Shown here piece after piece: positions 26,596 through 35,963 of a stretch of 64,000 nucleotides of DNA. Each line of letters begins with the position of its first letter. Position 1 is the stretch's first letter. The stretch lies in NCBI RefSeq assembly GCF_000186865.1, contig NW_008705566.1, forward strand, positions 1,791,699 through 1,855,698, in the 5' to 3' direction. This DNA is from Aureococcus anophagefferens. Lineage: Eukaryota; Sar; Pelagophyceae; Pelagomonadales; Pelagomonadaceae. The position numbers and the translations under genes are program-made. The notes below the pieces were generated by a model, which ran no database searches, was not told where the DNA came from, and saw only the letters and a list, made by a program, of their open reading frames with translations.

Positions 26596-29500
26596 TCACA
26601 CGACGGCGACCTTCGCGGGGAAGTGGGCCGCGTCGACGGCGGCCACGGTGCCGATGACCGCGGCGCGCGCGCAGCCGACGCGGCGGATCGCCGCGAGGGC
26701 CGCGTCGGCGCGGTCCGCGGGCACCGTCGCCAGCAGCCCCCCCGCGGTCTGGGGGTCGAAGAGGAGCGCGTAGGCCGCCGCGTCGAGCTCGACGGCCTCG
26801 CCGTGGTTCTCGACGGCGCGCTTCGCGCGGAGGTTCTCGTCCTGGAGGCTCGAGAAGACGCCGTCCCGCGCCAGGCGCTTCGCGCCGGCGAAGACGGGCG
26901 TCGCCGCCAGCGAGAGCTCCACGCGCGCGCCGCCCGACGCGCGGCACATCTCCGCCAGATGCCCGAGGAGCCCGAAGCCCGTGACGTCCGTGCAGGACGT
27001 GCAGCCGTGCTCCTTGAGCTCCGTCGCCGCCGCGCGGTTGCTCTGGGTCATGGACGCGAGGCACTCGCGGACCTCGGCGGCCCGCGACAGCGCGCGCATG
27101 TCGCCCGCGAAGACCGCGCCCGTGCCGAGCGGCTTCGTGAGGATCAGCGCGTCGCCCGCGACCATGCCCTCCTTGGACAGGAAGGCCGCGCCGCCGTCCG
27201 GCACGCCGTTGACGGCGAAGCCCAGCCCGAGCTCCGCGCCCTCGCACGTGTGGCCGCCGACCAAAGTGCAGCCCGCGGCGTCCAGCGCGACGCGCGCGCC
27301 GGACATGAGCTGGAAGAGCGTGTCCTCGACGCACCGGTTCGACCCGTAGGGCACGACGACGAGCGCCAGCGCCGACGCGGGCAGCGCGCCCATGGCGTCG
27401 CAGTCCGAGAGCGCGTGGTTCGCGGCGATCTGCCCAAAGACGTAGGGGTCCGACACGAACGACCGGAAGAAGTCGACGGTATGGACGACCTGGGTCCGCT
27501 GGTCCTTCTCGGGGCCGTAGGCGACGACGGCGCCGTCGTCGGGCGCGTCGACGCCGACGACGACGTCGCAGGGCGGCGGCGTGCCGTTGTCGAAGGTCAG
27601 CGACTTCGGCAGGTTCGCCAGCGCGCGCGTGAGCGCGGACGCGCCGACCTTGGCGCCGCAGCCGCCGCAGCGCATGGGCGCCGCCTTGAGCACGGCGAGC
27701 GCGTCGCCGCCGGCCTTCGTCGCCGCCGCGAAGGGCGGGAAGTCGCCGTCCCGCTCCGAGAGGTCGGGCAGCCCCTTCGTGTACTGCCACATCCACTTGC
27801 GGTCGATCCAGTCCTTGAGGTCCCAGAGCCAGGGCGCCTCGATGGCGAGGCCGCCCCGCGACGCGACGGCGGCGCCGTCGCCCGTGCCCAGCAAGCCGAG
27901 GAACGACGTCTGGGGCACGTGCGCGAGCGTCGGCGACCCGCAGACGTCCGCGACGAGGTTCGCGTAGAGCGCCATGCCCGCCATGACGGCGAAGACGCCG
28001 GCCTTGGGCCGCGGGTGGCCGTCGACGGACGCGCAGTCGCCCGCGGCGTAGACGCGCGTCGACGCGCGCGTCCCCGCGACGTCGCCCGCGAGGCCGCACC
28101 GCTGGTACTCGTCGACCCTCAAAAACCCGTCCGCGTCGACGCCGAAGCCCGACGCCCCGAGCCAGGGCGCCGCCGCGGCCTGCGTGCACCAGACGCACTC
28201 GTCGAAGGGCACGGTCGTCGCGGCGCCGTTTTTCAAGCGGCACGCGAGCCCGGCCTTGCCGCCGGCCGCCGCCGGGACGGCCTCGAGGGCCTCGTGGCCG
28301 TAGAGGACGTGCACGCCGGCCCGGTCCAGCGCCCGGGCCATGAGCGCCCGCACGCCCGGCGCGTGGCTCCGGAGCAGCTCCGCGCTCCGCGCGACGAGCG
28401 CGAAGCGCGCGAAGGTATCCGGGTCCTTGCCGAGCGCCTCGAGCTCCCGGCGCACGCGCGCGACCATGGCCAGGGCCAGCTCGACGCCGCCGGCGCCGCC
28501 GCCGACGACGACGAGGTCGTAGGGCGCCCTGTCGAGGGTCCAGCCCGCCATCTTCTCGAGCAGGCCGTCCCACTTCTCGGAGAACGTCGCGATGGGCTTG
28601 ACGGGCGTGAGCAGCGCCGACGACGACGACGACGCGCCCTTGGGCGCGATGCCGACGTTGATGGAGAGCACGTCGTAGGGGATGCGCGGCCGCGCCGCGT
28701 CCTTGAGGACGAGCTCCTTGGCGTCCACGTCGACGCGCGTGACCTCGCCGTCGATCAACCGGCACCGCGCGAAGCGCGCGAGCGCGTTGAGGTCGATGTG
28801 GCACTCGTCGCGGTCGTAAAACCCGGCGACGTGGCCCGGGAGCATGCCGCTGTAGGGCGTCTCCACGTCGCGGGTCACCAGAGTCAACCGGACGCCCTCG
28901 AGCGGCTCCATGCCCAGCCTGTGTGCAAATCAACCAGTGAGCTGGGACGTCGGGGCCAAACTTCAGAAATCTCTAGCTCGGTCACATCGAAGTCGATTCG
29001 GCTGATTTTTGGACGAATCGATTGCTCTCAGGGAGTTCTCGAAGCACAGCTGAAGAGTCTGGTCCGAACCGTTCGATTACGCGCACATTGAAGTCGAGTT
29101 GAAGATTTGATTTCCACACAGTGCCGAGCATGCGCAGCACGTGCACGTGGCTGTGGCCGCCGCCGATCAGGACGAGGTCCGTCAGCTCCGGCGACGCGTC
29201 GGCCTTCATGCGCTTCTCCATCATGTCCGCGCGCGCCTCGGCCTCGCTCTTCGCGGCGATCTGGCGCTGCGTCCGCACGTGCTCGAGCGGGTGGAGCCGG
29301 TAGATCGCGTCCGCGTCGCCGGGGAACTCGCGCTCGGCCTCGAGCACCTCGAAGCGCCGGTCCCGCTCGATGGACAACAGGAAGAGCAGCTCGCCGAAGC
29401 GCCGGCAGCGCGCCCCGACCTCGTACGAGGGGAGCGGGTTCGTCGCCTGGGCTTCCGCCTCGGCGGTGATGGCGAGCGCGGCGAGGTCCCGTTGCACGCC

Positions 29501-29608
29501 GACGTACGCCGCGACGCTCACGCCGCGCTTCTTCGCGAGGCGTCTCAGCAGCAGGTAGGCGCCGGCGGCGACGCCGCCCGCGTAGTAGAGCTTTTTCCTC
29601 GACTCCAT
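26596..29608 (-). CDS. selD: NADH dehydrogenase-like/selenide water dikinase fusion (SelD), two exons
   Basis: Exons 29130-29608 and 26596-28918 give 933 residues. An N-terminal hydrophobic segment (YYAGGVAAGAYLLLRRL) and a helical part precede a pyridine-nucleotide-disulfide oxidoreductase domain: DLVLIGGGHSHVHVLRML, TPYSGMLPGHVAGFYDRDEC, VVVGGGAGGVELALAM and VYAAGDCA. The SelD half starts near residue 520 with PMRCGGCGAKVGASALTRAL, where the catalytic Cys replaces the Sec of animal SPS2, then GVDAPDDGAVV, VHTVDFFRSFVSDPYVFGQI and ALSDCDAMGA. SelD makes selenophosphate from selenide and ATP for selenocysteine synthesis. The oxidoreductase may supply reduced selenium. The fusion is known in bacteria and algae. 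The intron is an introner. The gene is divergent from the BASS gene (145 bp between start codons). Confidence 0.93.
28919..29129 (-). mobile_element. Introner intron of the SelD fusion (211 bp, GC-AG)
   Basis: Read on the minus strand: GCTCGGCA (target copy 1), left arm CTGTGTGGAAATCAA, inside, right arm TTGATTTGCACACAG, then GCTGGGCA (target copy 2, one mismatch). The arms are 15-bp inverted repeats with one mismatch. Splicing CGCAT|GCTCGG...CACACAG|GCTGGGC restores RMLGMEPLEG, the expected family sequence. A GT donor inside the left arm would also keep frame but insert four residues. Confidence 0.88.
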
Positions 29609-35592: not shown

Positions 35593-35963
35593 CAGTGAAG
35601 CGATCAAAACTCAGATTCTGATAGCCTGGATTTAAAAGTCAACATTTTTGTTGAACTTCAGCACTTTTGTTGAAGTTAAATATTGCGATTTCTTGACCCG
35701 AACCAGCGACCGCGCGCAAAAAGTCTTCGCAAACGTGCAATCAACGCGTGAGTATCATCAAGCTTGCTTTGATACGAGCATAACCCAATTTTGGCCGTGA
35801 TTTCAGCCCGCGGACCTCCGCGACACCGCGCCCGCGCGCGCGGTCGACGCACAGCCTCTATGGAGGACTAATGACTCTGGCTCCGCCGGCCGGAATTCGA
35901 TGATTGATCTTTATTAATTAATTTCCTATGGGCGTGTCTAGATGTACGTTGATCGCTTCACTG
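35593..35963. mobile_element. Intergenic DNA transposon copy (371 bp) with exact 8-bp TSD
   Basis: Perfect 15-bp inverted ends, CAGTGAAGCGATCAA at 35593-35607 and TTGATCGCTTCACTG at 35949-35963, are flanked by an exact 8-bp duplication AATTTAGA (35585-35592 and 35964-35971). There is no coding capacity; the inside is AT-rich and has its own repeat TTTTGTTGAA. Structure (C-[A/T]-G ends, 8-bp TSD) is like that of the intronic introners. The left target copy starts on the second base of the upstream gene's TAA. The right end covers the first possible ATG of the helicase gene. Confidence 0.88.

What the first reader, a model, noticed from the sequence alone, without database searches (positions are those of the whole stretch)
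28911..29129. Introner in the SelD fusion gene with a GC donor from the target site
Inverted ends CTGTGTGGAAATCAA / TTGATTTGCACACAG and the target pair GCTCGGCA/GCTGGGCA flank a 211-bp intron. The GC at the splice donor is simply the first two bases of the target copy. So an insertion can become a working intron even where the target starts GC rather than GT, if the spliceosome accepts GC.
Basis: partly seen in the sequence, partly recalled or inferred. Interest (0 to 1): 0.8.

Follow-up and report, generated by a model that had tools for sequence, protein, structure and literature searches.

The report
GC-donor intron from a mobile element
A short mobile DNA element sits inside an algal selenium-metabolism gene and can be read as an intron whose start is supplied by the duplicated target DNA; comparing dozens of sister copies indicates that a target starting with GC can serve in place of the usual GT.

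Summary
The minus-strand SelD fusion gene carries a 203-bp element with 15-nt inverted ends (14/15) flanked by 8-bp target copies (7/8). It belongs to a large family: 1,074 exact ends genome-wide, 0 in reversed-pattern controls. The organism is Aureococcus anophagefferens by protein match. Reading the intron from the first base of the upstream target copy (GC) to the element's terminal CAG restores an ungapped, conserved protein. The family decides the donor. Of 93 copies examined, 76 had a confident coding strand: 75 begin with GC (48) or GT (27) on it, one with GA. Where only one strand could supply GC/GT, it was the coding strand in 61 of 61, including 40 of 40 for GC. A donor inside the element (+12 nt, +4 residues) predicts no such bias and is rejected. 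In a set not chosen by dinucleotide, GC is 48 of 105 one-sided starts. GC donors show no extra consensus at +3 to +6. Three of four GenBank models seen, over two genes, avoid the GC donor and splice within the element. Co-opted donors, both orientations, and GC donors in Micromonas introners are already in print; this is a well-tested member of a known kind. No RNA evidence was available.

The parts
29130..29608 (-). Exon upstream of the intron in the SelD fusion gene, from the likely ATG at 29608; reading ends ...HVLR(AT)
   Evidence: the start codon is inferred
29122..29129 (-). Upstream target copy GCTCGGCA; its first two bases are the GC splice donor
   Evidence: donor use inferred from the family
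29107..29121 (-). Terminal inverted repeat CTGTGTGGAAATCAA (5' end of the element in gene sense); holds the rival GT sites at 29119 and 29117
28919..29121 (-). 203-bp element, a MITE-like introner
28919..28933 (-). Second inverted repeat TTGATTTGCACACAG; its last three bases CAG are the acceptor; TTGAT is a possible branch site (inferred)
28919..29129 (-). The inferred intron, 211 nt, GC...AG, phase 2
28911..28918 (-). Downstream target copy GCTGGGCA, kept as exon sequence
26596..28918 (-). Downstream coding sequence of the fusion: most of Pyr_redox_2, then AIRS and AIRS_C (SelD) domains
29068..29069 (-). GT inside the element that reproduces the junction of the GenBank A. anophagefferens model P0003, adding 20 residues

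Best explanation
A non-autonomous cut-and-paste DNA element inserted into the coding sequence and duplicated 8 bp of it. Each inverted end finishes in TTGATTTSCACACAG, so whichever way the element lies, its downstream end supplies the acceptor. The donor is the first dinucleotide of the upstream target copy on the coding strand. It must be GT or GC (perhaps rarely GA), and apart from that little or no context is required. Splicing removes the element plus one target copy and restores the original message. Shown: anatomy, family, target copies, strand bias, both orientations, conservation of the restored protein. Inferred: that the SelD transcript uses 29129/28919, the branch site, and the transposase.
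For: Lists complete for contigs C1-C3: 218 exact ends form 146 elements (72 with both ends, 74 seen at one end, whose other target copy was taken as equal); 144 of 146 have GT or GC at the target start on at least one strand, and 105 have it on one strand only (57 GT, 48 GC) (lists). Coding strand from a codon model on joined flanks: 93 copies, 76 confident, coding-strand starts 48 GC, 27 GT, 1 GA; one-sided copies 61 of 61 on the coding strand, 40 of 40 for GC (sign-test p 8.7e-19 and 1.8e-12); 59 of 59 and 38 of 38 with target bases masked. The 8 loci taken by BLAST alone, blind to the target start (the window's own copy is one of them), are 6 GC and 2 GT on the coding strand. GC at sense positions 7-8 without GT/GC at 1-2: 0 of 76. 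Element orientation relative to the gene: 45 same, 31 opposite. The SelD junction gives the 13-residue spacing found in 94 of 95 homologues matched by the motif (25 of 120 listed were not matched). GC junctions in prolyl-tRNA synthetase, aspartyl aminopeptidase and CTP synthase copies show no gap at the junction in the two alignments printed for each.
Against: No RNA evidence. Three GenBank A. anophagefferens models do not use GC: P0003 for SelD, P0122 and P0139 for prolyl-tRNA synthetase. Over all 93 copies the called strand starts GC/GT in 88 and CC, CA, AC, GA, TG once each; 2 of 72 one-sided ones have GC/GT only on the strand not called coding (L033, L088; both non-confident, strongly negative on one side). 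The one confident exception (L091) starts with GA. Two target pairs read GC in the donor copy and GT in the exon copy, so some GC donors could derive from GT. Most copies were fetched through a GC or GT at one end, so a copy with neither could enter only by way or as a neighbour; the unselected evidence is and the 8 BLAST loci. A published remark says A. anophagefferens introners have canonical splicing motifs (PMC7789003, passage).
Confidence: 0.88

Rival explanations
1. The element carries both splice sites: the donor is the GT at CTGT|GTGG inside the inverted repeat, so the message gains 8 target bases plus 4 element bases (four residues).
For: The junction is in frame in SelD. Gozashti 2022 describes such a +12 bp case (4 element bases + 8 target bases) for family 4 of Aureococcus sp. 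(PMC9860276). The GenBank prolyl-tRNA synthetase model P0122 reads AEHCHVEGF, consistent with this donor plus an acceptor shifted into the exon copy (my reading, not computed).
Against: It predicts no constraint on the target start, but 144 of 146 elements on C1-C3 have GT/GC on at least one strand, 75 of 76 confident genic copies start GT/GC on the coding strand and 61 of 61 one-sided ones agree. It would put four extra residues into motifs that are ungapped in SelD relatives and in CTP synthase, prolyl-tRNA synthetase and aspartyl aminopeptidase.
Confidence: 0.05
2. The donor is another GT within the element, as in GenBank model P0003 (GT at 29069, +20 residues).
For: P0003 reads LGTVWKSNLQLDFNVRVIER at the site, matching GT 29069 to AG 28919.
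Against: P0003 is the only one of 95 motif-matched homologues with an insertion (33 against 13 residues), and it departs from the other homologues at further places in the alignment, as expected of an unsupported model.
Confidence: 0.02
3. The transposase prefers GC/GT target starts and splicing has no part in the bias.
For: 39 of 146 elements have GT/GC on both strands, so a mild palindromic preference is possible.
Against: The element inserts both ways round (45 to 31) and GC is self-complementary, yet GC/GT is on the coding strand in 61 of 61 one-sided confident copies.
Confidence: 0.03
4. This SelD copy is a recent insertion that is not spliced well and damages the gene.
For: A 98% identical database protein (P0001) lacks the insertion, so the site may be polymorphic; the target copies differ at 1 of 8 bases only.
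Against: The rest of the gene is intact and conserved, and its anatomy matches the other GC copies in intact reading frames (48 confident GC copies, this one included).
Confidence: 0.04

Closest known systems
Introner elements of Aureococcus anophagefferens (Huff, Zilberman and Roy 2016; paper not held, recalled)
   Same: Short non-autonomous DNA elements with target duplications; one splice site carried, the other taken from the target copy (recalled abstract). A review says Huff 2016 used transcriptome data and found co-opted splice sites and insertion in both orientations (PMC10228655, passage). About 210 bp is named as their characteristic length (PMC9481584, passage); this intron is 211 nt.
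   Different: Another paper describes their splicing motifs as canonical (PMC7789003, passage); here 48 of 105 one-sided starts are GC. Whether Huff 2016 reported GC donors could not be checked.
Aureococcus sp. family 4 of Gozashti et al. 2022 (PMC9860276, Fig. 2F legend)
   Same: 8-bp target copies; a 4-base offset into the element, as a donor at CTGT|GT in this element would give.
   Different: That family is said to carry both splice sites and add 12 bp; this family shows the donor in the target copy instead. Whether the two share sequence was not testable.
D-IE1 / IE-A introners of Micromonas pusilla CCMP1545 (PMC4815162, PMC3879977)
   Same: GC donors at 46% of complete D-IE1 (PMC4815162) or 53% of IE-A1 (PMC3879977), largely absent from first gene predictions; splicing supported by transcripts (passages).
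   Different: Their donors have a conserved context (AG|GYGCGT) and the vast majority lie in the gene's direction; here no context is seen at +3 to +6 and both orientations are common.
Amoebophrya introners (PMC7789003)
   Same: Direct and inverted repeats at intron ends, predicted hairpin joining the ends (passages).
   Different: Varied non-canonical borders and direct repeats of 3-5 nt; here one family, 8-bp target copies and GT/GC donors.

Membership tests
A. anophagefferens introner elements | Length near 210 bp | tested here: met
   203-bp element, 211-nt intron; length named in PMC9481584
A. anophagefferens introner elements | Terminal inverted repeats and target duplications of constant length | tested here: met
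   15-nt ends, 8-bp copies; identical in 60 of 76 confident copies
A. anophagefferens introner elements | One splice site carried, the other co-opted from the target copy | tested here: met
   Coding-strand bias at target positions 1-2; inferred, no RNA
A. anophagefferens introner elements | Insertion in both orientations (PMC10228655 on Huff 2016) | tested here: met
   45 same, 31 opposite
A. anophagefferens introner elements | Canonical splicing motifs, as stated in PMC7789003 | tested here: not met
   48 of 105 one-sided starts on C1-C3 are GC; the statement may allow GC, it gives no definition in the passage seen
A. anophagefferens introner elements | Moved by a DNA transposase | tested here: inconclusive
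   Inverted ends and target copies fit; no autonomous partner found; the hAT dimerisation family gave nothing but its control was silent too; 182 of 184 ends in held loci belong to the same short element
A. anophagefferens introner elements | Sequence identity to the published copies | not testable with these tools
   Huff 2016 not held
Aureococcus sp. family 4 (Gozashti 2022) | Carries both splice sites and adds 12 bp to the message | tested here: not met
   Target start constrained to GT/GC on the coding strand
Micromonas D-IE1 type | High share of GC donors | tested here: met
   48 of 105 against 46% in PMC4815162
Micromonas D-IE1 type | Conserved donor context AG|GYGCGT | tested here: not met
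   No enrichment at +3 to +6 against phase-matched coding background

The most novel reading that the evidence does not exclude
The donor is defined by position and not by its own sequence. The paired inverted ends form a stem in the pre-mRNA (mean predicted pairing 0.88 over the 70 confident copies of 195 bp or more, above 0.5 in 68) that leaves the 8-nt target copy as a free overhang beside the acceptor, so any G-pyrimidine exactly eight bases outside the stem is cut, with little need for U1 pairing. The transposase's 8-bp stagger would then set the splicing geometry in both orientations, and the published +12 bp Aureococcus mechanism would be an artefact of GT-only gene models.
Probability: 0.13. 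Interest if true: 0.8.

Novelty: new member of a known kind. Interest (0 to 1): 0.42.

Why it matters
Many copies of one element dropped into coding sequence act as a natural assay of what a spliceosome accepts as a donor. Here GC passes and, allowing for how common it is in this genome, is used about 0.22 times as often per available site as GT; GA about 0.01, from one copy (with the counts). Accepting GC opens intron phase 1, where GT is almost absent in this GC-rich code (0.15% of phase-1 sites against 15.6% for GC; observed 0 of 27 GT and 14 of 48 GC). GC insertions do not look younger than GT ones (target-copy mismatches 12 of 48 against 4 of 27, p 0.39). In practice, gene models that forbid GC misread such genes, which also bears on claims that introners add residues.

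Tried and rejected
Internal donor with four extra residues, the GenBank donor at 29069, and a strand-blind target preference: rejected as under rivals.

A U1 snRNA adapted to GC donors (5' end ACTTGCCT instead of ACTTACCT) was sought: Rfam U1 in the genome (no match, control silent); pattern ATACTTRCCTG (3 matches, one of them of the GC-pairing form at C38, against 7 in the reversed control); two further patterns (none; 25 matches, 1 in control). Six of those 25 and all 3 were fetched and run against Rfam up to E 1 with no match. No U1 gene was recognised, so this stays open and nothing follows from it.

An autonomous partner: one search for the hAT dimerisation family, nothing found, control silent; no other transposase family was searched. 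Element divergence as a clock for GC against GT copies (0.101 against 0.100, p 0.89) was set aside because it is far larger than target-copy mismatch, so most of it probably predates insertion. Context tests: 3 of 26 position tests gave chi-square above 13 (GC donors at -5, +7, +10); +7 is affected by how copies were picked, and the other two are not claimed.

Selection of copies: L009-L068 came from patterns requiring GC or GT at one end, and 38 of the 40 regions L072-L111 were aimed at GC starts (the other two at an AGAAGATC/GATCTTCT copy and a TGCGGGGG end). GC/GT proportions are therefore taken only; the one-sided strand test is not affected, since either strand could have been coding. Searches list only the first 100 places of 260, 386 and 363 ends; one search used those on C1-C3, where all four lists are complete. 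In one search, 17 of 93 copies were dropped as non-confident; with all 93 the one-sided result is 70 of 72. An earlier run on fewer loci gave 24 of 24 confident copies with GC/GT on the coding strand.

Full report
What was checked. On the minus strand, the window reads ...CTGCGCAT|GCTCGGCA-CTGTGTGGAAATCAA...TTGATTTGCACACAG|GCTGGGCATGGAG. The inverted ends pair at 14 of 15 positions with 173 nt between them, and the flanking 8-mers agree at 7 of 8. A de novo scan shows that inverted ends plus 8-bp repeats of this looseness occur by chance in this GC-rich window, so the anatomy alone would not carry the claim.

The family. A BLAST search of the whole genome (49.05 Mb, 86 contigs) returned 40 scored copies, the most it scores, at 90-100% identity, from 1,737 candidates. 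The exact end CTGTGTGNAAATCAA occurs 1,074 times: 386 with GC, 260 with GT, 65 with GA or GG, and 363 with a non-G base at the start of the preceding 8-mer; the reversed control pattern was not found in any of the four searches. In loci held, 182 of 184 such ends (one mismatch allowed) belong to the same short element. The organism is taken to be Aureococcus anophagefferens, since GenBank proteins of that name match the SelD gene (P0003) and a second gene (P0122, 100% over 96% of the query).

Which strand supplies the donor. On contigs C1-C3, where all four end lists are complete, 218 ends form 146 elements: 72 with both exact ends, 74 seen at one end, for which the other target copy was taken as equal. 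In 144 the target copy begins GT or GC on at least one strand; in 105 on one strand only, 57 GT and 48 GC; 2 have neither (one with out-of-register copies containing GT, one GA). For 93 distinct copies in held loci I joined the flanks and scored the six frames with a codon model trained on three genes of the window. 76 had a clear coding strand with both sides in one frame and no stop. Their coding-strand target starts are GC 48, GT 27, GA 1; the antisense starts are scattered over 15 dinucleotides. In the 61 one-sided confident copies, GC/GT lies on the coding strand every time, 40 of them GC. Masking the target bases in the strand call leaves 59 of 59 and 38 of 38. Over all 93 copies the called strand starts GC in 59, GT in 29, and CC, CA, AC, GA, TG once each; 70 of 72 one-sided ones agree, and the two that do not (L033, L088) are strongly negative on one side. 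The eight loci fetched by BLAST alone, blind to the target start and including the window's own copy, give 6 GC and 2 GT on the coding strand. Since GC is its own complement, a transposase preference blind to transcription would place it equally at positions 7-8; GC stands there in 9 of 76, but in none without GC or GT at 1-2.

What this excludes. If the element carried its own donor (CTGT|GTGG), the target start would be free, and elements with neither GT nor GC on either strand should be common; on C1-C3 there are 2 of 146. The same paper reports 0-50% GC and 0-40% GA donors across introner families and notes that target copies often include core GY nucleotides. Its RNA-seq analysis excluded genus-level TARA metagenomes, and the example comes from one, so the +12 bp reading may come from GT-only gene models; this is my inference and was not tested on that genome.

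Protein evidence. In SelD, the GC junction gives 13 residues between GGGHSH and GVRLT. Of 120 listed homologues, 95 match the motif used; 94 have 13 and one, the GenBank A. anophagefferens model P0003, has 33. Its 20 extra residues correspond exactly to a GT at 29069 inside the element. A 98% identical protein (P0001) has no insertion; whether it comes from DNA lacking the element or from a transcript is not known. For a GC copy in prolyl-tRNA synthetase (L056), the database proteins disagree: P0122 reads AEHCHVEGF, P0139 reads AEHCVEIKSSTRLQSHWLISTQAEHVEGF, P0123 and P0121 read AEHVEGF (the GC junction, or an empty site), and P0128 reads through the element's end. The GC junctions of that protein and of CTP synthase (L074) and aspartyl aminopeptidase (L035) show no gap in the two alignments to solved structures printed for each.

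How well GC works. In the sense-strand coding background around the confident copies, GC is 16.2%, GT 4.3% and GA 6.8% of dinucleotides; with 48 GC, 57 GT and 1 GA, relative use per site is 0.22 for GC and about 0.01 for GA. The GA rests on one copy (L091), whose donor could also be something else. Donor context at +3 to +6 does not differ from phase-matched background for GC (chi-square 1.3, 4.7, 2.6, 2.7 on 3 df) or GT (1.5, 0.8, 0.4, 6.5). GC donors occur in all phases (20, 14, 14 in phases 0, 1, 2) while GT donors are 17, 0, 10, following the near absence of GT at codon positions 2-3 in this genome; the two distributions differ at p 0.007. GC copies are not younger by target mismatches (12 of 48 against 4 of 27, p 0.39).

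Mechanism. Both ends read TTGATTTSCACACAG when approached as the 3' end, and copies occur in both orientations relative to the gene (45 same, 31 opposite, p 0.14). So the element is a two-way acceptor cassette that borrows its donor. In RNA the two ends are predicted to pair in 68 of 70 copies, which inverted repeats do by nature; for the window intron the whole-fold energy is not unusual (z -0.38). Whether the stem helps place the donor is a proposal, not a result.

Relation to print. Introners with a co-opted donor in A. anophagefferens and Micromonas are known (Huff 2016, recalled; not held); a review states that Huff 2016, with transcriptome data, found splice-site co-option and insertion in both orientations (PMC10228655, passage). 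GC donors at 46-53% in a Micromonas introner class, with transcript support and largely absent from first gene predictions, are published (PMC4815162, PMC3879977, passages). The listings showed no title or abstract start on GC donors in the A. anophagefferens family; I opened passages of seven papers (PMC9860276, PMC9481584, PMC4815162, PMC3879977, PMC7789003, PMC3488318, PMC10228655), none of which mentions them in the passages seen, and one of which states canonical motifs (PMC7789003). Since Huff 2016 was not readable, I do not claim that the GC share is unpublished.

Limits. No RNA was seen. The coding strand rests on a codon model trained on three genes. Most copies were chosen through their GC or GT ends, so proportions come only. 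The U1 snRNA and the autonomous partner were not found.

Noticed in passing
window 35593-35963: Another MITE-like element: 8-bp target copies AATTTAGA identical, inverted ends CAGTGAAGCGAT perfect over 12, 371 bp, GC 0.49.
   Followed up: no
L091 (coding-strand target GATCTTCT; C3:1341235-1341965): The only confident genic copy whose coding-strand target begins GA; either a GA donor or another junction.
   Followed up: partly
P0130 (prolyl-tRNA synthetase relative, 1,741-base contig): Reads MGISHPFPAQ directly before AEHVEGF, the exact junction of the introner copy in L056, but with a different upstream sequence: possibly a different intron at the same position in a related lineage.
   Followed up: no
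L075 and L098: Donor copy begins GC while the exon copy begins GT, so GT/GC exchange in one of the two copies has been tolerated.
   Followed up: partly
L099, L032, L043, L103, L012: Length variants of the element (116, 166, 147, 152, 237 bp) in genic sites that still have GC/GT on the coding strand; much of the interior seems dispensable.
   Followed up: no
C1:2855246-2855464 (in L025): Copy with out-of-register target repeats (GGTAGGGC / AGGTAGGG); a GT lies one base in.
   Followed up: no
P0002: A database SelD protein whose first part resembles other pelagophyte relatives and whose C-terminal part is Aureococcus-like, probably a chimeric assembly.
   Followed up: no
literature: PMC3488318, Fig. 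5 legend (passage): A 2012 survey treats A. anophagefferens as the obvious outlier in the relation of branch-point to acceptor signal strength; introns that share one element's end could be the reason.
   Followed up: no
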